Assembly (NCBI GenBank): GCA_003152355.1
Contig: PMAA01000205.1
Location: forward strand, 6,492 to 47,778
Direction: 5' to 3'
DNA from: Acidobacteriota bacterium
GTDB taxonomy: Bacteria; Acidobacteriota; Terriglobia; Acidiferrales; UBA7541
DNA length: 41,287 nucleotides
Below, piece after piece: positions 6,505-32,890 of the stretch; the stretch's first letter is position 1, and each line of letters opens with the position of its first letter. A model generated the notes under the pieces. The model had not been told where the DNA came from. It did no database searches and was given only the letters and a program-made list of their open reading frames with translations. Both the position numbers and the translations under genes were made by a program.

Positions 6505-7080
6505 ATGAGCAAAATAAAACGAGTGGGTTGCGCACTGGTATTGATTGGGATCACCGCCGTGATGGTGCGTTCGCAGGATACGGCAGGCGAATATGTGGCG
6601 CCGGCGAAAGCCGTTCCGACGGGCAAAGCTCCCAAGATGCAGGTGCAATTGCTGAATCCTGGAGAGCCGACGAAACAATATGCCGTCATCTTCTACCAGG
6701 GTGACGAGGCTTTTTCCGGGTTGCAAGAGTTTGCTGAGAAGTATCACGTCACGAGCGCGCATTTCACCGCGATTGGAGCGCTGAACGGAGCGACGGTGGC
6801 ATGGTTCGATCCCCAGCGCAAAATGTACAAGAAGATTCCCATCAATGGTCAGCACGAATTGATTGGGATGAGTGGCGATATCGCGCTCTATCAGGGAAGG
6901 CCCGTAGTGCATACTCACGCGGTGGTCGGGGGGCCAGACGGAACAACGCAGGGCGGTCACGTTCTCGAGGCATACGCATCACCGACGGTGGAAGTAATGG
7001 TTACAGTCGATCCGGTAACGATGCAGAAGCGTTTTGATCCGGAAACGGATCTCACGCTGATTGACCCAGCTTTGAAGTAG
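6505..7080 (+). CDS. Exported PPC/DUF296-domain protein
   Basis: A 191-aa protein with a short signal peptide (basic KIKR, then a hydrophobic stretch ending near VRSQ) and one PPC (plants and prokaryotes conserved, DUF296) domain from about residue 45 to 185. Typical family sequence is visible: a DEAFSGLQEFAEKY helix, SAHFTAIGALNGATVAWFD, and the histidine strand VVHTHAVVGGPDGTTQGGHVLEA. The conserved histidines (HTH and GGH) could bind a metal. PPC proteins are trimeric, and bacterial members have no firmly known reaction. GGGGAGAG lies about 8 bases before the ATG. The next gene is a leaderless paralogue 63 bases downstream on the same strand, probably co-transcribed. The exported location is unusual, since most members are cytosolic or DNA-associated. 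An acetolactate decarboxylase-like fold is a remote alternative. Confidence 0.88.
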   Translation: MSKIKRVGCALVLIGITAVMVRSQDTAGEYVAPAKAVPTGKAPKMQVQLLNPGEPTKQYAVIFYQGDEAFSGLQEFAEKYHVTSAHFTAIGALNGATVAWFDPQRKMYKKIPINGQHELIGMSGDIALYQGRPVVHTHAVVGGPDGTTQGGHVLEAYASPTVEVMVTVDPVTMQKRFDPETDLTLIDPALK

Positions 7081-7143
7081 TAGCATCGTGGCTCTTTTCT
7101 TGTTATCTGCATATCTAAGATTGTCTGAGCGAGAGGTGTCGTC

Positions 7144-7575
7144 ATGCGCTGGAAACAGATCGAGGATGAACCGAAAACTTTTGTCCTAATCTTTGAGACC
7201 GGCGACGAGATCGCGAGCGTCCTGCAACAGTTCGCCAGGGACCAAGGTTTAGCGGGAAGCAGCTTCAAAGCCATCGGCGCTTTTTCTTACGCGAAGCTGG
7301 GTTGGTTCAACTGGGAGACGAAGAAGTACGCTCCGGCCTGCGTTCTCGATGAACAAGTGGAACTGCTTTCGCTGATTGGCGACATCGCCCTCAAGGAGGG
7401 AGAGCCGCAAGTGCATGCGCACGTGGTAATCGGACGCTCTGACGGGACCGCCCATGGCGGGCACCTTCTTGAGGCTCGCGTGCGACCGACATGCGAATTG
7501 ATTTTGACGGAGAGTCCGATTCATCTTCAGAAGAAACTCGATCCTGAATCAGGAATAGCGTTGATCCAGATCTAG
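7144..7575 (+). CDS. Cytosolic PPC/DUF296-domain protein
   Basis: A 143-aa protein that is a single PPC/DUF296 domain without a signal peptide. It matches the upstream gene part for part: GDEIASVLQQFARDQG, SSFKAIGAFSYAKLGWFNWETKKY, GDIALKEGEPQVHAHVVIGRSDG and HGGHLLEARVRPTCELIL, keeping the HAH and GGH histidines. GAGAGGTG precedes the ATG at good spacing. The pair looks like a tandem duplication in which one copy gained a leader peptide. Function is unknown; a metal-bound trimer is expected from the family. The stop codon lies inside a 15-base tandem repeat (separate entry). Confidence 0.9.
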   Translation: MRWKQIEDEPKTFVLIFETGDEIASVLQQFARDQGLAGSSFKAIGAFSYAKLGWFNWETKKYAPACVLDEQVELLSLIGDIALKEGEPQVHAHVVIGRSDGTAHGGHLLEARVRPTCELILTESPIHLQKKLDPESGIALIQI

Positions 7576-7843: not shown

Positions 7844-9742
7844 ATGCCACATAAACTTACGAACATACTTGCCTTAGTTCCCAGCGATATTGTGATCGCG
7901 CAAGCCGCGACTCCCATCCCAATCAGCCGAATCGCCAGCGACGCAGGAATCCTTTCAGAAGAACTGGAGCCGTATGGGAGCACCAAGGCCAAAGTGCACC
8001 TCTCAGTTCGCGATCGCTTAAAGCACGTCACAAACGGCAAATACATTGTGGTGACCGCAATCACTCCCACCCCTTTGGGTGAAGGCAAGACAACCACCAC
8101 CGTCGGCCTGAGCCAAGCCATCGGGGCACACTTAGGCAAGCGCGTATTTACGTGCATCCGTCAACCCAGTCAGGGACCGACGTTTGGGATCAAGGGTGGA
8201 GCAGCCGGCGGCGGCTACAGTCAGATTATTCCGATGGAAGAATTTAATCTCCATCTTACGGGAGACATCCACGCCATCACGGCTGCGAATAACCTGCTGG
8301 CTGCCGCGATTGACGCACGTATTTTTCATGAAAATTCGCAAAAAGACGAAGCGCTCTTCGAGCGGCTATGCCCGCCGAACAAGTACGGCAATCGCACCTT
8401 TTCCCCGGTAATGTTGCGCCGGCTACATAAGCTCGGAATCGCGAAGTCTGATCCGAATGAATTGACATCCGAGGAACGTAGCCGCTTCGCGCGCTTGGAC
8501 ATCGACCCGGAGAGCATCGCCTGGCGGCGCGTGATCGACACCAACGACCGCATGCTGCGCCAGATCACGATTGGGCAGGGCGCTGAAGAAAAGGGATTCA
8601 CGCGCTCGACTGGGTTCGACATAACTGTTGCCAGCGAAGTAATGGCAATTCTCGCGCTAACCACCGGGTTGAACGATATGCGCGAACGCCTTGGGCGCAT
8701 GATGGTCGCGATCAGCAGGGCTGGTGAGCCGGTCACGGCCGACGATGTCGGAGTCGGTGGCGCTCTGACAGTCTTGATGAAAGACGCCATCATGCCAAAT
8801 CTCATGCAAACGCTCGAGGGAACGCCTGCGTTTGTCCACGCAGGACCCTTTGCAAACATCGCTCACGGTAATTCATCGATCGTGGCGGACCAAATTGCCT
8901 TGAAGCTCGTCGGGCCGGATGGCTACGTCCTAACCGAAGCAGGCTTCGGCGCGGACATAGGGATGGAGAAGTTTTTCAACATCAAGTGCCGTTATAGCGG
9001 GCTGATTCCGAGCTGCGTCGTTTTAGTTGCGACAATTCGAGCTTTGAAGATGCATGGCGGTGGCCCTAAGGTCACAGCTGGCCAGCCACTGGCCACCGAG
9101 TATTCGCAGGAGAATCTGGATTTGCTAGAGAAGGGCTGCGCCAATCTTGTAAAGATGATCCAGAACGCCCAGGCGTTCGGAATCCCTGTCGTCGCGGCGG
9201 TGAATCGCTTTAAGGACGACACGGCAGCCGAAATCGACCTTGTGCGTCGCATCGGCGTGAATGCAGGGGCCGAAGACGCGGTCATGAGCGATCACTGGGC
9301 GCAGGGCGGAGCCGGAGCGATTGAGTTGGGCAAGGCCGTGATCGCGGCCTGCGAGAAACCAAGAGATTTTCAATTTCTCTACCCGCTCGACATGAGTATC
9401 AAAGGAAAAATCGAAACGATCGTTCGCGAGATGTACGGCGGTGCGAGAGTCGAATACTCGCGGGAGGCGGAGAAGAAGATTGACCTGTACACGCGTCTTG
9501 GATTCGACAAATTGCCGGTCTGCATGGCCAAGACCCATTTGAGCTTAAGCCACGATCCCAGCCTCAAAGGAGCTCCGACTGGATTCACGGTGCCCGTACG
9601 AGATGTTCGAGCGAGCGCCGGAGCGGGGTTTGTTTATCCGCTACTCGGTGCGATGAGCACGATGCCGGGACTTCCGACACGACCGGCATATTACGATGTG
9701 GATCTGGACCCGCAAACTGGCCGCGTTGTCGGGCTCTCCTAA
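7844..9742 (+). CDS. fhs: Formate-tetrahydrofolate ligase, long C1-THF-synthase-like form
   Basis: Cytosolic enzyme that joins formate to tetrahydrofolate using ATP, giving 10-formyl-THF for purine and one-carbon metabolism (EC 6.3.4.3). The 632-aa chain shows the P-loop [16 protein letters not shown], the folate/ATP region [34 protein letters not shown], and the closing [15 protein letters not shown] and [11 protein letters not shown]. It is longer than the ~556-aa bacterial enzyme because of an insertion after [18 protein letters not shown] (with [13 protein letters not shown] and [16 protein letters not shown]). I recall that insertion and the flanking text as nearly the same as the ligase domain of eukaryotic C1-THF synthase. 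AGGGA precedes the ATG. No folD or other folate gene is adjacent. It faces the Mo-hydroxylase operon tail to tail. Confidence 0.97.
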
Positions 9743-9836: not shown

Positions 9837-10259
9837 TCACTTCCGCACTGATTCGGCCGAAGCACGAACGTTCATCCTAAAAATATCACTCAAGAGAAAC
9901 AGGTCCGTGAGCAGGGCGCGGAGATGAATCGATGCGTTGAGATTGTCGATTAATTGAGAGCTGATGGACGGTTGGGCCAGCACCAGCTCAATGGCCGCCA
10001 GAGAGTCCCGGGCGTCCCGGTCGACCACGGCGACGAACGCCTCATAGCGTTCGCTCGGTTCAAGACTCTGTCGCTTTACCGCCATCGCGCAACATTCTGA
10101 GAGGCCAGAGATCGCGTTCACGGCACGATTTAGGAACTCGCGGATCCGCGCGCCCGATGCGCTTCCTCCTTCAGCAGGTAGTCCTTGCGCGGCGTAAGCC
10201 AGCATGAACTCGTAGCATTCTTCGATCGTGTTGCAGCGCTCCGAGATATCAGCCGGCAT
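9837..10259 (-). CDS. Small helical protein, last gene of the Mo-hydroxylase operon
   Basis: A 140-aa protein I do not recognise. It is predicted to be almost all alpha-helix (IEECYEFMLAYAAQG, RIREFLNRAVNAISGLSECC, DRDARDSLAAIELVLAQ, LRALLTDLFLLSDIFRM), has no signal peptide or membrane span, and is acidic overall. Its ATG overlaps the end of the cytochrome b gene by 11 bases, with GAGGGG upstream, so it is translationally coupled to the operon. In related three-subunit molybdenum hydroxylase loci this position is often taken by an XdhC/PaoD-type maturation factor. This protein lacks the XdhC Rossmann motif, but a dedicated assembly or chaperone role is a reasonable inference from position. 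A four-helix-bundle regulator is another option. Confidence 0.8.
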   Translation of the reverse strand: MPADISERCNTIEECYEFMLAYAAQGLPAEGGSASGARIREFLNRAVNAISGLSECCAMAVKRQSLEPSERYEAFVAVVDRDARDSLAAIELVLAQPSISSQLIDNLNASIHLRALLTDLFLLSDIFRMNVRASAESVRK

Positions 10260-11121
10260 CGGTTAACCCCTCGGTGTCCGCTCCTCGGGATCTCGCAGGC
10301 GACTCGGAAGGCTCGACAGGCCATCGCGCTGGATCGTGTTCTTCAAGATAAAAGTCACGGCTCATCCAACCGAAGATCATGGATTTGGTAATAGCTCGCT
10401 TTTCCGGACGAAGCCCAAAGTAGACGTGCACCATGATTAACGCGATCAATCCGACGCCCGCCAGCCCGTGCAGGACGTACATCATGCCCCAGGTCATGTC
10501 GGAGAACAGATACGGATTGCGGGGAAAAAAGATCGTACGCACGCGAGACATCATGAACACGCCCGTGATGATCACGGAAAGACCAGCGGCGATGATGGCG
10601 CCGTGGTAGAGCTTGTTCTCCAGGGGATACTTGGCGAATCTATCCGGCGGCGGCGCGGCCTTGCCAACAGAGCGCAGCATTCTTCTCCGCGCGTCCCGCA
10701 GGTCAATCCTATCCGGCCAGATCGACCAGAAATCCATAAAGAATGAGGCGTGGATAATGTGAAAGAGGATGGAGGCGGTAAGAACGGCACCCGCGATCCA
10801 ATGATAGGTGACCCAGTTGAACTGAAAACCCACCTTCGGCAGAAAGGCAGTAAATAGCAACGTGAACATGGCAGCTGCCATAACCCAGTGGAACAGTCGC
10901 GCCGTCAGCGAGTGTCTGGGCACATGTTCTGGTATGCGCGCCACGAGCAGCGGTGAATTGCTGCCCGCAAACTCTCTGGCTTTGGCGAAGTATCGCAAGT
11001 ACGTGGCGTGAACGATAAAGAACAGCAACCCGGCAATCACCGCCACCCATATCAAGAACCAAGCGATATGAATCGGGACGCGCTGCCCCCACGGACTAGT
11101 GGCCCACTCTAGGAAGCCCAT
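10249..11121 (-). CDS. Membrane cytochrome b subunit (FdnI/NiFe-hydrogenase type)
   Basis: Di-heme b-type cytochrome in the inner membrane, about 290 aa, passing electrons to quinone. The ATG at 11121 follows a GGAGGAGTGGAGGAGG tract and overlaps the FAD-subunit gene by 13 bases; the track start at 11397 is an out-of-frame read-through of that gene and is rejected. Hydrophobic helices: WFLIWVAVIAGLLFFIV, WVMAAAMFTLLFTAF, WIAGAVLTASILFHIIHA, AIIAAGLSVIITGVF and LHGLAGVGLIALIMVHVY. Candidate heme ligands are His in RLFHW, TYHW/LFHIIH, KLYHG, YVLHG and MVHVYFG, the layout of the formate dehydrogenase gamma/hydrogenase cytochrome b family. Its place between the FAD subunit and a helical protein says it is the electron exit of the Mo-hydroxylase. 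Such a partner is uncommon for xanthine-dehydrogenase-type enzymes. Confidence 0.92.
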   Translation of the reverse strand: MGFLEWATSPWGQRVPIHIAWFLIWVAVIAGLLFFIVHATYLRYFAKAREFAGSNSPLLVARIPEHVPRHSLTARLFHWVMAAAMFTLLFTAFLPKVGFQFNWVTYHWIAGAVLTASILFHIIHASFFMDFWSIWPDRIDLRDARRRMLRSVGKAAPPPDRFAKYPLENKLYHGAIIAAGLSVIITGVFMMSRVRTIFFPRNPYLFSDMTWGMMYVLHGLAGVGLIALIMVHVYFGLRPEKRAITKSMIFGWMSRDFYLEEHDPARWPVEPSESPARSRGADTEGLTDAG

Positions 11122-12122
11122 GTCGCCTCCTCCACTCCTCCAATAGCGCGCTTTACCAGATTCCTCATCAGTGGGATCTTGTACGCGTTGAACTGCAAGG
11201 GGATGGCTCCCTGCACTGCCAGTTTCCCCGCCATTTCTCCGGTTGCTGCGTTCGGTGGTTTGCCGCGGACCGCGTCTTCGACAACCTTCAAGCGCAGAGG
11301 ACGAGCGGCCGCGCCATTCACCGCTATGCGCATCCGCTCGATGGTGCCATTCGATACGGCCATCGCGGAGGCTACGTTCAACAGGGGAAAGTCCCACACA
11401 TTCCGGTCTCGCACTTTCTCAAAATAGAATTGCGCGCCGGCCCACGAGGTTGGAATACGAATCGCCGTCAGAAGGTCCCCAGGCTTCAAGATGTGCAAGC
11501 GGGTGATATCGATTTCAGGTCCGATGAAGTAGTCTTCGGCGTCCACCACGCGCTCACCCTTGGAAGTGCGAATCACGAATTTGGCATCGAGTGCAATAAG
11601 CGCGGGAGCAGTGTCGGAAGGATTCACCGCCACGCAGCGGTCCGCATGCAGAATTGCGTGCTCGCGATTGCGTCCCTCCGGCGTGTCGGCATAGCAGATG
11701 TTTCCGCCTGCGCGATAGCAAGGCCATCCGGCGCGATAATACCAACAGCGGGTGTCCTGCGACACATTGCCGCCAATCGTGCCTTGGTTCCGGATCTGCG
11801 GTGAAGCCACCAATTCCGCGCTCTCCGCCAACAGGTTGTACTTCTCTCTGATGACAGGATGCTGGACTACTTCCGTTAGCGTGGTCATCGCTCCGATTTC
11901 GACGCCGTCAGACGTTGTACGAATTCCTTTAAGTTCCGCGATCCCGCTCAGGTCGACCACCACCTTGGGTTTCTTGATGCGATCTTTAAGCCAGTCGAAG
12001 CTGTCCATGCCTCCGGCCAACACCCATGCATCGCCCTGCTCCTCGAGCAACTTTTGCGCGTCAGCAATGGAATTCGGCTGAAGCAGTTCAAAAGCCGGCA
12101 TGACGTCTCGGATTACAGCCAT
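11109..12122 (-). CDS. FAD subunit of molybdenum hydroxylase with Cys4 (4Fe-4S-type) insertion
   Basis: Medium subunit (337 aa) of a xanthine-dehydrogenase-family enzyme. The FAD-binding PCMH-like N-terminal part contains LAGGMDSFDWLKDRI and the second flavin motif RNQGTIGGNV at about 111-120. CO-dehydrogenase flavoprotein C-terminal sequence follows (FYFEKVRDRNVWDFPLLNVA ... ERMRIAVNGAAARPLR). Right after the flavin motif come Cys126, Cys135, Cys143 and Cys163, within TRCWYYRAGWPCYRAGGNIC and ILHADRC. The same spacing style occurs in PaoB and in 4-hydroxybenzoyl-CoA reductase beta, where it holds a 4Fe-4S cluster, so an extra cluster is likely here. AAGGAG lies about five bases before the ATG. 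It follows the Mo-cofactor gene by 22 bases and overlaps the cytochrome b start. No leader peptide; export would rely on the Tat-tagged partner. Confidence 0.95.
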   Translation of the reverse strand: MAVIRDVMPAFELLQPNSIADAQKLLEEQGDAWVLAGGMDSFDWLKDRIKKPKVVVDLSGIAELKGIRTTSDGVEIGAMTTLTEVVQHPVIREKYNLLAESAELVASPQIRNQGTIGGNVSQDTRCWYYRAGWPCYRAGGNICYADTPEGRNREHAILHADRCVAVNPSDTAPALIALDAKFVIRTSKGERVVDAEDYFIGPEIDITRLHILKPGDLLTAIRIPTSWAGAQFYFEKVRDRNVWDFPLLNVASAMAVSNGTIERMRIAVNGAAARPLRLKVVEDAVRGKPPNAATGEMAGKLAVQGAIPLQFNAYKIPLMRNLVKRAIGGVEEATWAS

Positions 12123-12144
12123 GGGCTCTCCTTTCGGGTCTCCA

Positions 12145-14691
12145 CTAAATGTGCGCCATTAAGGGATGTTGCATGGGCCGTCCTGCTTCAAGGGACGTGA
12201 GAATAGTGTCTGCATTGACGGGCGCTCGCCGAAAAATTTCATCACCAAGAGCGTCCGAGAGCGCGTTCAGGATGGAGGCACACCCGCCGCCAACCGGCGG
12301 CTCGCCTACACCGCGAGCGCCAACCGGCGTCTCCGGATCTGGAATATCGAGCGCCGCCCATTGCATGTCGACGGGTATATCCAGAATCGTTGGCGGCTTG
12401 CTCTGACTGAATCGCGTCGAAAGCATTGCACCATAGTGAGGATCGAAGACCCATTTCTGGCCAATCGCATGCCCGATGCCCAAAGTAGACCGGCCCAGGA
12501 TTTGACCTCCAAGCGCGCGAGGATGAATTACCGAGCCGACATCTGCATAGGCGAGGAAATCCACGATGTAATACTTGCCGGTTTCGACGTCGACCTCGAC
12601 TTCGGCAAAGCTGGCAACGTAGGAAAATGTCGCGCCATCGCGAGGGTAATTGTCCTTCGCGGCCGCCACCAAGCCTTGGCCTGCCAGCGCTGCCAACGAC
12701 GCCTTCGTTACTTTGTTCAGGTCTGGGGACGCTTCGTGGCCATCGTAGATGCCACCCAGTTGAATGGCGTACTTTGCAGCCTGCGCCAGGGTCATGCCGG
12801 CGCCACTGCCCTTCCGAAATACACGCTCGTTGGCAACGTCGTAATTTTCTGGTTTGCCGCCGAGTTTCTTCGCTGCAATCTCCTGGAGTTTTTTCCGCGC
12901 ATCCATCGCGGTCGCGTATGCCGCACGTGTCATTGCGTGGGTCGTCTGGCTCCCGCCGGAAACACAGGTAAAGGGAAGGTTCTTCGACGAGTCGCCCCAT
13001 GTGATGTCGCACTTCTCCCACGGCACTCCCAAAATCTCGGCAGCCACCCGGTGCACATCGATCACGGACTCTGTTCCGAGGTTGCCGATACCGGACAGGA
13101 TGGATAATCGCCCGTCGGGCTTGATGATCAGGATCCCATCGAAGCCTATCGTGCCGCCAACGTAACAACTGAGCGACACGCCTACACCACGCACCTTTGT
13201 ACCGATTCGCTTCGGAGTGCGCGCAACCCTTTCGCTCCATTTGAACTGTTCCGCTCCACGGTCGAGCGCTTCCTTCAAGAATGCACTCGTTGCATAAGGC
13301 CTTTTGCCCTGCACCGCTGGCCCGAATGGCGCTTTGCCCTCGGGACAGTTGATTCGGCGTATAGCCACCTGATCGATCCCCAGTTTGCGCGCAGCTTTCG
13401 CGATCACCGGTTCGATAATCGCGATCCCCTGCATACCGCCAGGAGAACTTTGCGCGCTTCTTGGCGGCGTGTTTGTCAGTATGGTGGCTCCGCGCCAGCG
13501 CATGGCTTGCGGTTGATACAAGAGAGACACGATACGGCCCGACGAGGGGACATCGCCCCCTGCATCATAGGGACCGTTATTGCAGATGACGAACATATCC
13601 AGTGCGATGATCCGGCCGTCGCTGGAAAAGCCTGCTTTCATCCGCCCCAACAGGCTGGGCCGCGCACGGCCAATGAAGGTCTCCTCCTCGCGGCTGATTC
13701 GCATCATCACCGGTGCATTGGCCTTCTTCGACAAAAGCGCGGGAATAATCAGCGAAATTCCCGCTGTGACCTTGCTGCCGAAGCCGCCTCCAGTGTATTC
13801 GCTGATGAGAACCACTTTGCTCACGTCGATGTTCAGCCATCTCGCGATGGCGGGCACGGTTTGAGCGGTGCTCTGCGTGCCGGTATAAACGTAGACTTTC
13901 CCGTTCTGCCAGTAAGCCATCGCGCTGCGGGTCTCCAGCGTCTGGTGGCTCGTGTCTGGTGTCACGAACGTTTCATCGAGGACCAGCGCCGCGTTCCGGA
14001 AGCCCGCTTCCACGTCGCCGTATGACCATTCGTCAGGTGTCTTTCCGAGGGGCAGACGCCCTTGCTTTGCCTCTTCGAAGTCAGCCTCGGTCCACTTCAG
14101 TTCTCCGATCGTGGGAGGTGGCGGAGGCGGTGGCGGAGATCCCGCCACGGCCGCCGGCGCCGGAGGCCGCACCCAGATGTTTCCGTCCGTTCTTGGGTTC
14201 GGCCCACCGGGTCGCAATGATTCAAGAGGATCGATGACGAACGGAAGCGGCTCAAGATCTATCCGAATCTTTTCAATCGCTTCTGCGGCGGTCAGCTCAT
14301 CGACCGCGGCCACGGCTAGAATCGGTTCACCTTGGTAGAGCGGCTCCATCGTGAGCGCACGCTCGCTCTTCGGGTTGGCCCGAATCACCGTGCCATTGTC
14401 TGTCAGGGAATCGGCCGGAGGCGGAAGCTCGCCGGCCATCAGAATCGCTTTCACTCCAGGCATTGCAAGCGCTTGACGCACGTCGAGGTGCTTCACGCGC
14501 GCGTGCGGCAGAGGACTGAGCAGCAGCTTGCAAAACAGCATACCCTCGGCGTGATAATCCTCAGCGTACTTTGCCTGCCCCGTGACTTTCGCATAGAGGT
14601 CTGGGGTTTCGTAATCCTTGCCGATCAGTTTGTGTCCGGCCCCGTACACGCGCCCACTTGCTCCGCTAGGCTCAACATCGCTCTTAGGCAC
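12145..14691 (-). CDS. Molybdopterin-binding catalytic subunit, xanthine dehydrogenase family
   Basis: Catalytic subunit (848 aa) carrying the molybdopterin cytosine dinucleotide site of an aldehyde-oxidase/xanthine-dehydrogenase-type hydroxylase. The first domain starts KDYETPDLYAKVTGQAKYAED; the second has EYTGGGFGSKV, RRINCPEGKAPFG and, near the C-terminus, the active-site loop VGARGVGEPPVGGG with the catalytic Glu of the family. The GTG start at 14691 overlaps the 2Fe-2S gene by eight bases and has GAGGAGGG upstream. Between the two domains is a run of eight prolines (AGSPPPPPPPPTIG), an unusual linker and a likely EF-P-dependent translation site. Substrate cannot be read from sequence; the PaoC-like context favours aldehydes, and N-heterocycles remain possible. 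It presumably folds in the cytosol and crosses the membrane with the Tat-tagged small subunit. Confidence 0.96.
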   Translation of the reverse strand: MPKSDVEPSGASGRVYGAGHKLIGKDYETPDLYAKVTGQAKYAEDYHAEGMLFCKLLLSPLPHARVKHLDVRQALAMPGVKAILMAGELPPPADSLTDNGTVIRANPKSERALTMEPLYQGEPILAVAAVDELTAAEAIEKIRIDLEPLPFVIDPLESLRPGGPNPRTDGNIWVRPPAPAAVAGSPPPPPPPPTIGELKWTEADFEEAKQGRLPLGKTPDEWSYGDVEAGFRNAALVLDETFVTPDTSHQTLETRSAMAYWQNGKVYVYTGTQSTAQTVPAIARWLNIDVSKVVLISEYTGGGFGSKVTAGISLIIPALLSKKANAPVMMRISREEETFIGRARPSLLGRMKAGFSSDGRIIALDMFVICNNGPYDAGGDVPSSGRIVSLLYQPQAMRWRGATILTNTPPRSAQSSPGGMQGIAIIEPVIAKAARKLGIDQVAIRRINCPEGKAPFGPAVQGKRPYATSAFLKEALDRGAEQFKWSERVARTPKRIGTKVRGVGVSLSCYVGGTIGFDGILIIKPDGRLSILSGIGNLGTESVIDVHRVAAEILGVPWEKCDITWGDSSKNLPFTCVSGGSQTTHAMTRAAYATAMDARKKLQEIAAKKLGGKPENYDVANERVFRKGSGAGMTLAQAAKYAIQLGGIYDGHEASPDLNKVTKASLAALAGQGLVAAAKDNYPRDGATFSYVASFAEVEVDVETGKYYIVDFLAYADVGSVIHPRALGGQILGRSTLGIGHAIGQKWVFDPHYGAMLSTRFSQSKPPTILDIPVDMQWAALDIPDPETPVGARGVGEPPVGGGCASILNALSDALGDEIFRRAPVNADTILTSLEAGRPMQHPLMAHI

Positions 14692-15328
14692 GGCTCGCCC
14701 TCCTCATGTTTTCCGCGCCGCGCATCATCGCGGTCAGAATCTTGTCGTAATCCTGGCACCGGCACAGATTTCCGGAAAGGCCGTGCGCCAGTTCGCTCCG
14801 CGTGGGATTGGGATTCGTCTTTAGGAATGCCACCGATGCCATGATGAAGCCAGGCATGCAGAACGCGCACTGAAAGCCTTGTTCGTCGATGACGCCCTGC
14901 TGGACCGGGTGCAGCGTTCCATCGGGGCTCGCCAGCCCTTCGATCGTCAGGATTTTTCGATCGCGCACCGTGTGTGTCAGCACCGAGCAGGCGTAATGAG
15001 GAACGCCGTCAATGAGCACGGTGCAAGAGCCACATTCGGCTCGGTCGCAGCCGAGCTTCGTGCCGGTGAGCCCCAATTTGTGGCGCAGCGTCCAGGCCAA
15101 CGTTTCTTGTTTCATGACGTCGACTCGCCGCTGCTGCCCGTTCACATTGATGGTAAGGAGCCTTTCACCCGTGCCCGGAGCAGACTGGCCCAATAGAGTG
15201 GAGGCGCGGAAAAGATAGCTTGCGGAGGAAACTGCCACACCGCCTACAATCACACCCTTTATCAAGTCGCGTCTTGAGAGCTTATTTGGCAGCGGTTCAA
15301 TAAACTCGTTACCGTCGATGTCGCTCAT
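14684..15328 (-). CDS. 2Fe-2S subunit of molybdenum hydroxylase with Tat leader
   Basis: Small electron-transfer subunit (214 aa) and the first gene of the five-gene operon. The N-terminus has a twin-arginine signal (LSRRDLIKG, then VIVGGVAVSSASYLF). A plant-type ferredoxin domain follows with Cys94, 99, 102 and 114 (LGCDRAECGSC ... HYAC). The helical second domain holds the other cluster with Cys154, 157, 189 and 191 (FQCAFCMPG, NLCRCQDY). Length is above the usual ~160 because of the leader. AGGAGG precedes the ATG. By analogy with PaoA, this leader probably carries the whole folded complex to the periplasm. There the complex can dock with the cytochrome b encoded two genes further down the operon. 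Its 3' end overlaps the catalytic-subunit start. Confidence 0.96.
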   Translation of the reverse strand: MSDIDGNEFIEPLPNKLSRRDLIKGVIVGGVAVSSASYLFRASTLLGQSAPGTGERLLTINVNGQQRRVDVMKQETLAWTLRHKLGLTGTKLGCDRAECGSCTVLIDGVPHYACSVLTHTVRDRKILTIEGLASPDGTLHPVQQGVIDEQGFQCAFCMPGFIMASVAFLKTNPNPTRSELAHGLSGNLCRCQDYDKILTAMMRGAENMRRASRA

Positions 15329-17021: not shown

Positions 17022-17574
17022 ATCAGCCTCCGGACCAGAGCTCCGTCCAGGATGTTCAAGACCCGGCTGCCCTAGCACCGATCGAGAACTCAAAACTAAA
17101 CGTTAGGAGGGAATTCTCATACAAGTCGCACAAAGATTCAATCAATCGGAAATATCCGATTTGAACCCTCTGCTACGCGCATCGTGTTCTTCTCGCGGGT
17201 CGACTCAATTGAATTTGACTTCAGAGCACGCTCCATGGAGGACGCAGGGTTCCGGCAGATCATTTTTACCATCCGACCACCCAGTTGCTATGGCGGATTC
17301 CTCAGAGACTGCTCCGACTTTCCTCACTCGGCCCCCAGATTTTGCGACGACAATCGGAATACTACGTGCTCGGCCCATGCAATTCGCCTCGTAAGTGATT
17401 GACCGTCGCGCCTTAAACACGCCAATTTTCATGCCTACAAACACTGATTCCGTCGAATGCGGCGACGTAGATCTGCGAACGATGTGACATGAGCAGGAAA
17501 GGCAATCTGACTTGGCGTATGATGTGCCGAATCCGGAGCCCAGAATTAGAGTTTCCGCTTGGGAGGTGCGTTCC
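17022..17574. other. Divergent intergenic region before poxB
   Basis: A 553-base region between divergent genes. Several frames are open (17161..17394 plus, 17205..17630 minus), but none has a Shine-Dalgarno sequence, a domain I know, or a signal peptide. A TTGACC at 17399 has no good -10 partner at normal spacing. It may hold decayed coding sequence, but I could not identify any family. Confidence 0.3.
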
Positions 17575-19308
17575 ATGTCGCGAAAAGTTGCGGACGTGTT
17601 GTGGGAAATGCTCGCTAACGCCGGTGTCAAGCGCTGCTATGGGATTGTTGGGGACGCTCTCAATCCTGTCATTGACGCGCTGCGCCGCAACGGCAAGATC
17701 GAGTTCGTCCACGTGCGCCATGAGGAATACGGTGTTTTTGCCGCCGTCGCCGAGGCCTACTTAACGGACAACCCAGTTGTGGTGTGTGGGACGGCCGGCC
17801 CCGGTGTCGTCCATCTGTTCAATGGGCTGATGGACGCGCGCAAGGAGGGAGCTCCGATTATCGCCATTGCAGGCGATGTGGAGACGAAGCTCATCGACAC
17901 GGAGGCGCTCGAAGAGATCAATCCTTACAAGTTTTTCGAGACCGCATCTCTTTACACGGGGCGCCTCGTCAATCCTGAGCAGGCGCGAGCAATCATCAAT
18001 ACCGCGATTCTCACCGCCGTCATGCAAAAGGGACCGACTGTAATCTCAATTCCGGGCGATGTCGCTTCGGCTGATGCGGCCGACCAGTCCTCCGAAATCA
18101 GAATCCCCGCCGCACCGATCGTCCGGCCTTCGGATGCGGACCTCAGTCAGCTCGCGAAAATGATAAACGATGCGAAAAAAGTGGCAATTTTCGGCGGCGA
18201 TGGCTGCAGGGATGCACGCGATGAGGTGCTCCAACTGGCAGAAAGATTGAAGGCGCCAGTCGGCTATTCATTCCGCGGCAAGCAGTGGTTGGAACATGAC
18301 AATCCAAATGCAGTTGGCATGACCGGCCTGCTCGGTTACGGCGGAGCCTATGGTGCAATTCATGACGCCGACCTCCTGCTGATGCTGGGCACCGACTTCC
18401 CGTTCCCGGAGTTTCTCCCTGGCGATAGCGTGAAGAAAGTTCAGATTGACAAAAATCCGAAACACATTGGACGCCGGACGGCCGTTGATCTTGGCCTCGT
18501 CGGTGACATCAAGGCGACCGTCACCGCGGTGCTGAAGAGTGTGAGTGATAAGAACGACGCCCGCTTTCTCGACAAGCACGTCGCGGACACGAAATCCTTC
18601 GACGAGCTTCTGCAGCATTACGTCGTGAAGGGGCCTGGGATGAAGCCCATTCGTCCGGAATTCCTGGCTGCGACGCTGAGCGATCTCGCCGCTGAAGATG
18701 CCATGTTTTTTGCCGACACGGGCACGGCATGCATGTGGTTATCAAGACATATTAAAGGCGGCAGAAACCGCAGGCTGTTCGGTTCGTTTACATGGGCATC
18801 CATGGCCAATGCCGCGCCCAACGCGTTCGGCGCGCAATTGGCATATCCTGGCCGGCAAACGATCGCATTGTGCGGCGACGGCGGATTCACTATGCTCGCG
18901 CTGGGCGACTTGTTGACGCAGGTCGAACGAAAAGCTCCTGTCGTTCAGATCATTCTCAATAACGGATCCCTCGACTTCGTCAATATCGAGATGCAAGAGG
19001 CCGGCATTGTTCCCTTCGGCGTCCAATTCAAGAACCCCGATTTCGCCAAGGTCGCCGAAGCGATGGGCGCGAAGGGAATCCGAATCGAAGAGCCCAGCGA
19101 CGTTCGGGATGGACTTGCTGCGGCACTGGCGCATAAGGGTGGCCCGGTCGTCGTTGACGCAGTCGTCGATCCGTTCGCTCTTTCGCTGCCGTCGCACGTT
19201 CCTTTGCACGCGGCCGCTGGCTTCACGCTTAGCCTTGCCAAACAGGTATGGAACGGCAAGATGGACGAAGTGATCAAGACGATCGAACGAAACGTCAGAT
19301 TGATATGA
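17575..19308 (+). CDS. poxB: Pyruvate:quinone oxidoreductase (pyruvate oxidase, PoxB-type)
   Basis: Thiamine-diphosphate and FAD enzyme that converts pyruvate to acetate and CO2 and gives electrons to quinone at the membrane. It is 577 aa from the ATG at 17575, which has GGGAGG upstream; the track start at 17512 adds an unlikely extension. Three domains are visible: Pyr domain with catalytic Glu in RHEEYGVFAAVAEA; central FAD domain from about residue 190 (KVAIFGGDGC, GMTGLLGYGGAY); PP domain with the ThDP motif GDGGFTMLALGDLLTQ ending in ILNN. The C-terminal segment (AAGFTLSLAKQVWNGKMDEVIKTI) resembles the E. coli PoxB membrane-binding tail region. A different ThDP enzyme such as acetolactate synthase is less likely because of this tail and the overall PoxB pattern. 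Confidence 0.92.
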   Translation: MSRKVADVLWEMLANAGVKRCYGIVGDALNPVIDALRRNGKIEFVHVRHEEYGVFAAVAEAYLTDNPVVVCGTAGPGVVHLFNGLMDARKEGAPIIAIAGDVETKLIDTEALEEINPYKFFETASLYTGRLVNPEQARAIINTAILTAVMQKGPTVISIPGDVASADAADQSSEIRIPAAPIVRPSDADLSQLAKMINDAKKVAIFGGDGCRDARDEVLQLAERLKAPVGYSFRGKQWLEHDNPNAVGMTGLLGYGGAYGAIHDADLLLMLGTDFPFPEFLPGDSVKKVQIDKNPKHIGRRTAVDLGLVGDIKATVTAVLKSVSDKNDARFLDKHVADTKSFDELLQHYVVKGPGMKPIRPEFLAATLSDLAAEDAMFFADTGTACMWLSRHIKGGRNRRLFGSFTWASMANAAPNAFGAQLAYPGRQTIALCGDGGFTMLALGDLLTQVERKAPVVQIILNNGSLDFVNIEMQEAGIVPFGVQFKNPDFAKVAEAMGAKGIRIEEPSDVRDGLAAALAHKGGPVVVDAVVDPFALSLPSHVPLHAAAGFTLSLAKQVWNGKMDEVIKTIERNVRLI

Positions 19309-31462: not shown

Positions 31463-32890
31463 CTAGCCATTTGGCGCAGAGCGGCCGTGGGCTTGGTCGA
31501 GCGGCCATGTTTTGACGGCCCGCGCCCGAAGAAAATACGCGCCCAATCCCAATACTAAAAGAATGCCAGCAGTGCCGAGATTCTGGCGTTGTTCCGGCGC
31601 GCTCGCGACAAAGATCCACCCTACAAGTGCAATGAGCGCCGGCACGGGATAAAGCCACATGCCATAGGGACGCTGGATTTCTGTGCGATATTTGCGCATG
31701 GCGAACACGGCGAATATCTGAGGGATGAACTGAAACACAATCTGAATGATCATTAAAGCTGAGAGCAGCCGCTCCAGCGAAAACCAGCAGAGTGGAATGG
31801 CCATCGCATTGATGGCGATAAGTGAAACGGTTGGAAAGCGGCCCGTGGAATGGACGCGGCCGAACATCTTAAAAAAGTTTCCCTCCGCGCCGGCGGCATA
31901 GAGGATTCGAGTGAGACCCAGGCTCAAGCTGAAAATCCCCCCGAGAGTCGCGACCAGAATGAGGCATGTCATCACCGAGGCCGCGCGTGAGCCGTACAAC
32001 TTTCCGATGAAATCCGACACCACCGCGTGAGAGACGGCGGCTTCGCGCCATGGAATCGTTCCGATAATCACCTCGCTCATTAACAGGTAAAGGACAGCGA
32101 TGATCAGAACCGAGAACACAATGGCTCTGGGAATATTCTTCGCGGGATTTTTGACTTCGCCTCCGAGGTAGGTGATGTTGTTGTACCCGCCATAGTTATA
32201 CATCGCGAATAAGGTGGCCCCCGCCAAACCGTAGAAAAACGATTTGGAGAGATGAAACGCGCCAGGCGGAAAATCAAATACCATCTTCGTGTTGATGTGT
32301 ATTACGCCGGAAACGATTACCCAAAACATCGCGACCAACACCACGCCCAACATGACAACCGAGTAACGTCCCACCGATTTGATGGGACGATACAAAAGGA
32401 ATGTGACGAGCACACAAATGGATGCGGCGATGGCGCCGACGCCAACGTGACTTAATCCAGGAAAGAAATAATGGGTATATTCGGCGAAGCCGACGCAGGC
32501 CCCCGAAATGGATAGTGGACCGACAAAAATTGTTTCCCATAGGAAGAGGAAAGAGAATAATTGGCCCCAGGCGCGGGAGTTGAAGGCCTCGCGAAAATAT
32601 ATATACGCCCCGCCGGCCCCGGGCATCGCGGCGCCCAGTTCGGCGTAAACCATCCCATCGCAGACGGAAAACAATGCTCCGAGAAACCATCCGAGCACAG
32701 CCTGCGGCCCGCCCATCGCGGAAAGTATCACTCCGATGGTGATGAAAGGGCCGATGCCAATCATCTCCAGCATGTTTACGGCGGTGGACTGGACCAAGCC
32801 CATGCCGCGAACAAGTTTTTCGGAAGGTCCCGCGATGTCGGCGGGAAGATGCGGTGCAGGGTTTTCGGTCACGTCACGCGTCCTGGACAC
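31463..32890 (-). CDS. APC-superfamily amino acid permease
   Basis: Inner-membrane transporter of the amino acid/polyamine/organocation superfamily, 475 aa with about 12 helices. The first helix has the unwound substrate-binding stretch NMLEMIGIGPFITIGVILSAMGG. It continues LGALFSVCDGMVYAELGAAMPGAGGAYIYFREAF, the conserved family core, and YNYGGYNNITYLGGEVKNPAKNIPRAI in the middle. The substrate is probably an amino acid, but the family also has members for other small organic ions. It ends 29 bases from the LacI gene, convergently. A LacI-type palindrome lies about 75 bases upstream of its start, so it may belong to the same regulon although no sugar-transport motif is visible. Confidence 0.93.
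   Translation of the reverse strand: MSRTRDVTENPAPHLPADIAGPSEKLVRGMGLVQSTAVNMLEMIGIGPFITIGVILSAMGGPQAVLGWFLGALFSVCDGMVYAELGAAMPGAGGAYIYFREAFNSRAWGQLFSFLFLWETIFVGPLSISGACVGFAEYTHYFFPGLSHVGVGAIAASICVLVTFLLYRPIKSVGRYSVVMLGVVLVAMFWVIVSGVIHINTKMVFDFPPGAFHLSKSFFYGLAGATLFAMYNYGGYNNITYLGGEVKNPAKNIPRAIVFSVLIIAVLYLLMSEVIIGTIPWREAAVSHAVVSDFIGKLYGSRAASVMTCLILVATLGGIFSLSLGLTRILYAAGAEGNFFKMFGRVHSTGRFPTVSLIAINAMAIPLCWFSLERLLSALMIIQIVFQFIPQIFAVFAMRKYRTEIQRPYGMWLYPVPALIALVGWIFVASAPEQRQNLGTAGILLVLGLGAYFLRARAVKTWPLDQAHGRSAPNG

What the first reader, a model, noticed from the sequence alone, without database searches (positions are those of the whole stretch)
9837..15328. Molybdenum-hydroxylase operon with its own membrane cytochrome b and an unknown fifth protein
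Five overlapping or closely spaced minus-strand genes encode a Tat-tagged 2Fe-2S subunit, Mo-cofactor subunit, FAD/Cys4 subunit, a five-helix FdnI-type cytochrome b, and a small helical protein. Xanthine-dehydrogenase-family enzymes normally pass electrons to NAD, O2, ferredoxin or soluble cytochromes. Here the linked cytochrome b suggests a periplasmic, membrane-docked hydroxylase that reduces quinone. This is the strongest candidate in the window for an undescribed respiratory system. Substrate is unknown.
Basis: partly seen in the sequence, partly recalled or inferred. Interest (0 to 1): 0.75.

Follow-up and report, generated by a model that had tools for sequence, protein, structure and literature searches.

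The report
Molybdenum hydroxylase wired to membrane cytochrome
Soil Acidobacteriota carry a conserved five-gene operon in which a molybdenum enzyme, predicted to work outside the inner membrane, has its own membrane cytochrome b that probably feeds its electrons into the respiratory chain; enzymes of this family were not known to be wired this way.

Summary
Five minus-strand genes (15328 to 9837) encode a Tat-tagged [2Fe-2S] subunit, a molybdopterin subunit, an FAD subunit with a PaoB-type four-Cys motif, a five-helix cytochrome b and a 140-aa helical protein (ORF5) of no known family. The order is conserved: in 80 of 80 genome-collection loci as far as contigs reach, and for 30 of 34 cytochrome b copies examined in a 297-genome phylum survey. 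The cytochrome b is a remote FdnI relative (only significant Foldseek hit: FDH-N gamma; hhalign 96.6%); the four FdnI heme-ligand histidines have essentially invariant counterparts. The four FAD-subunit cysteines, Tat RR and eight [2Fe-2S] cysteines are invariant. Full-length ORF5 occurs only in genomes with this cytochrome b. Most likely it is a periplasmic PaoABC-like hydroxylase passing electrons Mo, 2x[2Fe-2S], FAD, [4Fe-4S], heme bP, heme bC, quinone, with ORF5 as an assembly factor. Substrate is unknown; neighbours hint at aldehydes or nucleobases. Quinone-linked Mo hydroxylases exist (CODH with CoxG), so the new part is the dedicated FdnI-type cytochrome b module and ORF5. No description was found in the papers searched.

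The parts
14684..15328 (-). small subunit, two [2Fe-2S] clusters, with Tat signal (SRRDLIKG)
   Evidence: Pfam Fer2 and Fer2_2; RR and eight Cys invariant in 76/76
12145..14691 (-). large molybdopterin subunit, GTG start, overlaps the preceding gene
   Evidence: Ald_Xan_dh_C, MoCoBD_1, MoCoBD_2; Glu797 (GVGE, aligned with PaoC GVGE) 76/76; nearest solved: 4-hydroxybenzoyl-CoA reductase alpha, PaoC
11109..12122 (-). FAD subunit with C126/C135/C143/C163 motif, predicted [4Fe-4S] site as in PaoB
   Evidence: FAD_binding_5, CO_deh_flav_C; the four Cys 91/91 and aligned with PaoB
10249..11121 (-). five-helix di-heme cytochrome b (FdnI-like plus an extra N-terminal helix)
   Evidence: PF01292; Foldseek 1kqf_C E 8.6e-7; hhalign to FdnI prob 96.6, ligands H78/H107/H218/H232; conserved in 104-105 of 105
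9837..10259 (-). ORF5, 140-aa soluble helical protein of unknown family; proposed assembly factor
   Evidence: 79 of 80 loci; AF2 pLDDT 90.9, all helical; no Pfam, NCBIfam or significant PDB match

Best explanation
The operon encodes a Tat-exported, PaoABC-like molybdenum hydroxylase that is anchored to the periplasmic face of the inner membrane by its own FdnI-type di-heme cytochrome b and reduces quinone. Shown by sequence: the subunits, Tat signal, cofactor motifs, heme ligands and conserved linkage. Inferred: the signal on the FeS subunit carries the Mo and FAD subunits along (as PaoA does for PaoB and PaoC); substrate oxidation at Mo sends electrons through two [2Fe-2S] clusters, FAD and the FAD subunit's [4Fe-4S] cluster to heme bP (H107/H218), then across the membrane to heme bC (H78/H232) and to quinone near the cytoplasmic face, which would make the reaction a proton-motive redox half-loop as in formate dehydrogenase-N. 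ORF5, with no signal or membrane segment, is most likely a cytoplasmic assembly or export-proofreading factor, encoded next to other maturation genes (NifU-like, XdhC, MocA) in some relatives. Substrate: an aldehyde or an N-heterocycle; not determined.
For: Gene order FeS-Mo-FAD-cytb-ORF5 in 80/80 loci as far as contigs reach, ORF5 in 79/80. Phylum survey: 32 of 297 genomes carry the cytochrome b; 30 of 34 examined copies lie directly behind a 61-79% identical FAD gene. Overlapping genes. Four Cys 91/91, Tat RR 76/76, heme-ligand His 104-105 of 105. FdnI is the only significant structural match, and the H218-H232 spacing (14) equals H155-H169 of FdnI. Mean K+R: inner loops 4.6/7.8/6.1, outer 0.7/0.2/2.9. 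Full-length ORF5 in 20 genomes, all with the cytochrome b; none in the 265 without it. Where the Mo gene is missing from the operon, a 56-57% identical copy lies elsewhere in the genome. PaoABC co-export: PMC4273604. NifU-like in 23, XdhC in 19 and MocA in 18 loci.
Against: No biochemistry. No complex could be modelled, so docking and cluster-to-heme distances are untested. Nine FAD copies of the same clade have no cytochrome b beside them, so the hydroxylase may have other acceptors or share a cytochrome b. Three cytochrome b copies stand without the hydroxylase, one near a PQQ dehydrogenase. ORF5 was not found in lineage f48, so it is not universal. The cytochrome b model is of moderate confidence (pLDDT 75), and the H107/H57 pairing was read by eye.
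Confidence: 0.78

Rival explanations
1. The enzyme is a soluble periplasmic PaoABC-like detoxifier; the cytochrome b is only one of several acceptors, or serves other periplasmic dehydrogenases too.
For: Nine clade members without an adjacent cytochrome b; cytochrome b without the hydroxylase in three loci, one next to a PQQ dehydrogenase; PaoABC itself has no identified acceptor (PMC3958847).
Against: Overlapping genes and near-absolute linkage in the phylum; most copies lacking a cytochrome b are second copies in genomes that also have the full operon.
Confidence: 0.12
2. The electron flow is reversed: the enzyme is a quinol-driven reductase, like the inverted flow of 4-hydroxybenzoyl-CoA reductase.
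For: NCBIfam scores are highest for the three 4-hydroxybenzoyl-CoA reductase subunits, and the nearest solved Mo subunit is HcrA.
Against: All scores are far below the equivalog cut-offs. The FAD Cys motif follows PaoB and the 5y6q aldehyde oxidase, not the HcrB spacing. A CoA thioester is not a likely periplasmic substrate, and quinol is a weak reductant (established biochemistry).
Confidence: 0.05
3. ORF5 is a structural subunit of the mature complex rather than a maturation factor (a rival on this one part; it leaves the main explanation standing).
For: It is as tightly linked as the catalytic genes, with invariant polar residues (D105, N108, H112, R114).
Against: No export signal or membrane helix; not found in lineage f48, which keeps the other four genes.
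Confidence: 0.3

Closest known systems
E. coli PaoABC periplasmic aldehyde oxidoreductase (with PaoD)
   Same: Tat-tagged 2x[2Fe-2S] subunit, FAD subunit with the same four-Cys motif, Mo subunit of the xanthine oxidase family, no signal on the other two
   Different: No cytochrome b and no ORF5 in the pao operon; gene order differs (FeS-FAD-Mo); NCBIfam PaoA and PaoC cut-offs missed; terminal acceptor of PaoABC unidentified (PMC3958847)
Formate dehydrogenase-N gamma subunit FdnI (1kqf_C)
   Same: Fold, four heme ligands with the same 14-residue spacing in the last helix, KYxxxxK region, proposed bP to bC to quinone path
   Different: Its catalytic partner is a DMSO-reductase-family enzyme with a ferredoxin-type beta subunit; ours has an extra N-terminal helix and hairpin and five more invariant His; below the TIGR01583 cut-off (49.9 vs 115.85)
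Mo-Cu CO dehydrogenase with CoxG
   Same: Xanthine-oxidase-family enzyme delivering electrons to quinone through a membrane partner (PMC13240472)
   Different: CoxG is a quinone-binding protein, not a cytochrome; the CoxM-type FAD subunit lacks the four-Cys insert; CoxL cut-offs missed
Membrane-bound aldehyde dehydrogenase of acetic acid bacteria (8gy3)
   Same: Mo hydroxylase feeding electrons into the respiratory chain from the periplasm (own knowledge)
   Different: Uses a multi-heme cytochrome c subunit, not an integral di-heme cytochrome b (own knowledge); large subunit only distantly similar (57.8 bits)
4-Hydroxybenzoyl-CoA reductase HcrABC
   Same: Three subunits, extra [4Fe-4S] in the FAD subunit, best NCBIfam scores
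   Different: Cytoplasmic, ferredoxin-linked, inverted flow (own knowledge); Cys spacing differs; far below cut-offs

Membership tests
Xanthine oxidase family (molybdenum hydroxylases) | Ald_Xan_dh_C, MoCoBD_1/2, Fer2/Fer2_2 and FAD_binding_5 domains over their cut-offs | tested here: met
Xanthine oxidase family (molybdenum hydroxylases) | Catalytic glutamate in the GVGE motif | tested here: met
   E797 in 76/76, aligned with PaoC GVGE
PaoABC-type periplasmic aldehyde oxidoreductase | Tat signal on the [2Fe-2S] subunit | tested here: met
   RR 76/76; the PaoA model matches residues 16-206, signal included; Pfam TAT_signal only weak (13.3 vs 22.7 bits)
PaoABC-type periplasmic aldehyde oxidoreductase | Four-Cys [4Fe-4S] motif in the FAD subunit | tested here: met
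   91/91, aligned with PaoB
PaoABC-type periplasmic aldehyde oxidoreductase | Equivalog scores for PaoA and PaoC | tested here: not met
   140.2 vs 322 and 255.5 vs 1180
PaoABC-type periplasmic aldehyde oxidoreductase | Aldehyde oxidation | not testable with these tools
   no assay
FdnI-type cytochrome b | FdnI fold | tested here: met
   Foldseek 1kqf_C E 8.6e-7, TM 0.67 by target length
FdnI-type cytochrome b | Four axial heme histidines | tested here: met
   H78, H218, H232 by alignment; H107/H57 placed by eye from HWIAG/HPFFG
FdnI-type cytochrome b | TIGR01583 formate dehydrogenase gamma equivalog score | tested here: not met
   49.9 vs 115.85: remote relative, not an FDH gamma
4-Hydroxybenzoyl-CoA reductase | TIGR03193/03194/03195 equivalog scores | tested here: not met
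   157.7/257.8, 331.9/994.55, 194.4/404.55
Aerobic CO dehydrogenase | CoxL equivalog score | tested here: not met
   163.7 vs 991.15 and 216.8 vs 950

The most novel reading that the evidence does not exclude
A new class of respiratory complex: a xanthine-oxidase-family hydroxylase joined to an FdnI-type di-heme cytochrome b so that oxidation of an organic substrate in the periplasm drives a proton-motive redox loop, with ORF5 as a new kind of dedicated assembly factor and extra conserved histidines (H38, H70, H121, H124, H173) forming a quinone site or a further heme site.
Probability: 0.5. Interest if true: 0.75.

Novelty: new variant of a known kind. Interest (0 to 1): 0.6.

Why it matters
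Molybdenum hydroxylases are usually drawn as soluble enzymes, and the acceptor of the best-studied periplasmic one, PaoABC, was unidentified (PMC3958847). This operon supplies a concrete, testable acceptor: a dedicated membrane cytochrome b with several hundred relatives in public genomes, the closest from soil and peat. It would add a respiratory electron input to the energy budget of Acidobacteriota, an abundant and poorly cultured soil phylum, and it defines an unknown, co-occurring protein family (ORF5) to study.

Tried and rejected
Upstream GTG 11397 as cytochrome b start: rejected (inside the FAD gene; a ribosome-binding-like stretch precedes ATG 11121, and relatives start there). Formate-THF ligase (7844-9742) and the PoxB-like TPP enzyme (17512-19308) as operon partners: not conserved beside relatives; the TPP gene of lineage f48 is a different, benzoylformate-decarboxylase-like enzyme. 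Superoxide-oxidase type cytochrome b561: structural match far worse (5oc0 E 0.65 vs 1kqf_C 8.6e-7). ORF5 against Pfam, NCBIfam, PDB sequences and PDB folds: only generic helical noise. Cytochrome b profile against PDB sequences: nothing significant. Plasmids: no match. Literature searches found no description of this arrangement.

Full report
What is there. Window 15328-9837, minus strand, holds five tightly packed genes. Their products are a 214-aa protein with a Tat motif and two [2Fe-2S] domains; an 848-aa molybdopterin subunit; a 337-aa FAD subunit; a 290-aa membrane cytochrome b; and a 140-aa helical protein, ORF5. FeS/Mo, FAD/cytochrome b and cytochrome b/ORF5 overlap by a few codons; Mo and FAD are 22 nt apart. 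The cytochrome b begins at ATG 11121.

Conservation. A search of 297 genomes of the phylum found the cytochrome b in 32. Of the 35 copies, 34 were examined: 30 lie directly behind an FAD gene 61-79% identical to this one, one is a distant variant with a different order (L067), and three stand apart (L061, L065, L066). In three genomes (G277, G253, G041) the operon lacks Mo, but a 56-57% identical Mo gene lies elsewhere. A scan of 84,980 species genomes found 526 relatives of the cytochrome b; the best 80, nearly all named as Acidobacteriota from soil and peat, show the order FeS-Mo-FAD-cytb-ORF5 in every case as far as the contig reaches, with ORF5 in 79. The other 446 were not read. Two Binataceae-labelled bins and one Deltaproteobacteria-labelled bin carry it too; transfer or mis-binning was not resolved.

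Cofactor motifs. In the FAD subunit C126, C135, C143 and C163 are invariant in 91 sequences and align with the four cysteines of E. coli PaoB; the spacing is that of PaoB and of the aldehyde oxidase 5y6q, not of HcrB. The Tat arginines and eight [2Fe-2S] cysteines are invariant in 76 sequences, and Glu797 of the Mo subunit in 76. [quoted passage not shown]

Cytochrome b. The family profile aligns with FdnI (hhalign probability 96.6): H78 with H18, H218 with H155, H232 with H169; H107 lies in HWIAG opposite H57 in HPFFG (the automatic alignment placed a gap there, so this pair is read by eye; the FdnI ligand assignment is established knowledge of 1KQF). The AlphaFold model (pLDDT 75, five long helices) has one significant match in the PDB, the FDH-N gamma subunit (E 8.6e-7). 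Charges favour an outer N-terminus and inner loops after helices 1, 3 and 5, which puts H107/H218 near the periplasm and H78/H232 near the cytoplasm as in FdnI. Five further histidines (H38, H70, H121, H124, H173) are invariant in 105 sequences and lie towards the predicted cytoplasmic side; their role is unknown.

ORF5. It has no evident signal or membrane segment, and no known family. AlphaFold gives a confident all-helical fold (pLDDT 90.9) with no significant PDB relative. Full-length ORF5 occurs in 20 of the 32 genomes with the cytochrome b and in none of the other 265; one further genome has only a 39-residue match. Its absence from lineage f48, which keeps the other four genes, argues for an accessory role.

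Evolution. The FAD clade (at least 60% identity) is sharply separated from other full-length homologues (at most 44%). In the tree, copies without an adjacent cytochrome b are scattered among copies that have one, which suggests an old link with later duplication or loss; the root of that tree is not reliable.

Substrate. Not determined. In 23 loci a NifU-like gene lies nearby, with XdhC in 19 and MocA in 18, which fits a maturation set for this kind of enzyme. In five Acidobacteriaceae loci (L111, L117, L123, L124, L125) these are followed by dihydropyrimidine dehydrogenase PreTA and dihydropyrimidinase, which points to nucleobases; in lineage f48 a benzoylformate-decarboxylase-like gene precedes FeS, which points to an aromatic aldehyde. 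The window itself has neither.

Comparison. It works like a cross between PaoABC and formate dehydrogenase-N. It is a member of the xanthine oxidase family, but not an ortholog of PaoABC, HcrABC or CO dehydrogenase by curated cut-offs, and the cytochrome b is a remote FdnI relative, not an FDH gamma. Mo-CODH also feeds quinone, through CoxG (PMC13240472), so quinone coupling as such is known; the dedicated di-heme cytochrome b and ORF5 are, as far as the papers searched show, new.

Noticed in passing
L111, L117, L123, L124, L125, downstream of ORF5: Operon followed by maturation genes (NifU-like, MocA, XdhC in most) and a pyrimidine-degradation set (PreT, PreA, dihydropyrimidinase, in two loci an NCS1 nucleobase transporter): a substrate hint.
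   Followed up: partly
L062 14642-16342 and the same place in L059, L060, L063, L064: Benzoylformate-decarboxylase-like TPP gene upstream of the FeS gene, same strand in the locus scored (L062); ORF5 was not found in this lineage.
   Followed up: partly
L065 9011-9841; L066 9111-10495; L061 9876-10781: Cytochrome b of the same family without the hydroxylase: once next to a PQQ dehydrogenase, once with ORF5 beside a pyridine-nucleotide-disulphide oxidoreductase.
   Followed up: partly
L220, L222, L225, L227: Second copies of the hydroxylase without cytochrome b; L222 and L225 have a similar small lipoprotein-like gene after FAD, and L220 has two Mo genes flanking FAD.
   Followed up: no
window 6505-7575: Two adjacent genes for PCC (DUF296) domain proteins, one with a signal-like N-terminus.
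   Followed up: no
L226 (G084:C25:26000-39000), match at contig 32583-32699: 39-residue match to the most conserved part of ORF5 with an in-frame TGA, in a genome without the cytochrome b: possible remnant.
   Followed up: no
L131, L140: Operon in two bins labelled Candidatus Binataceae, a well-supported pair inside the acidobacterial tree: transfer or mis-binning.
   Followed up: no
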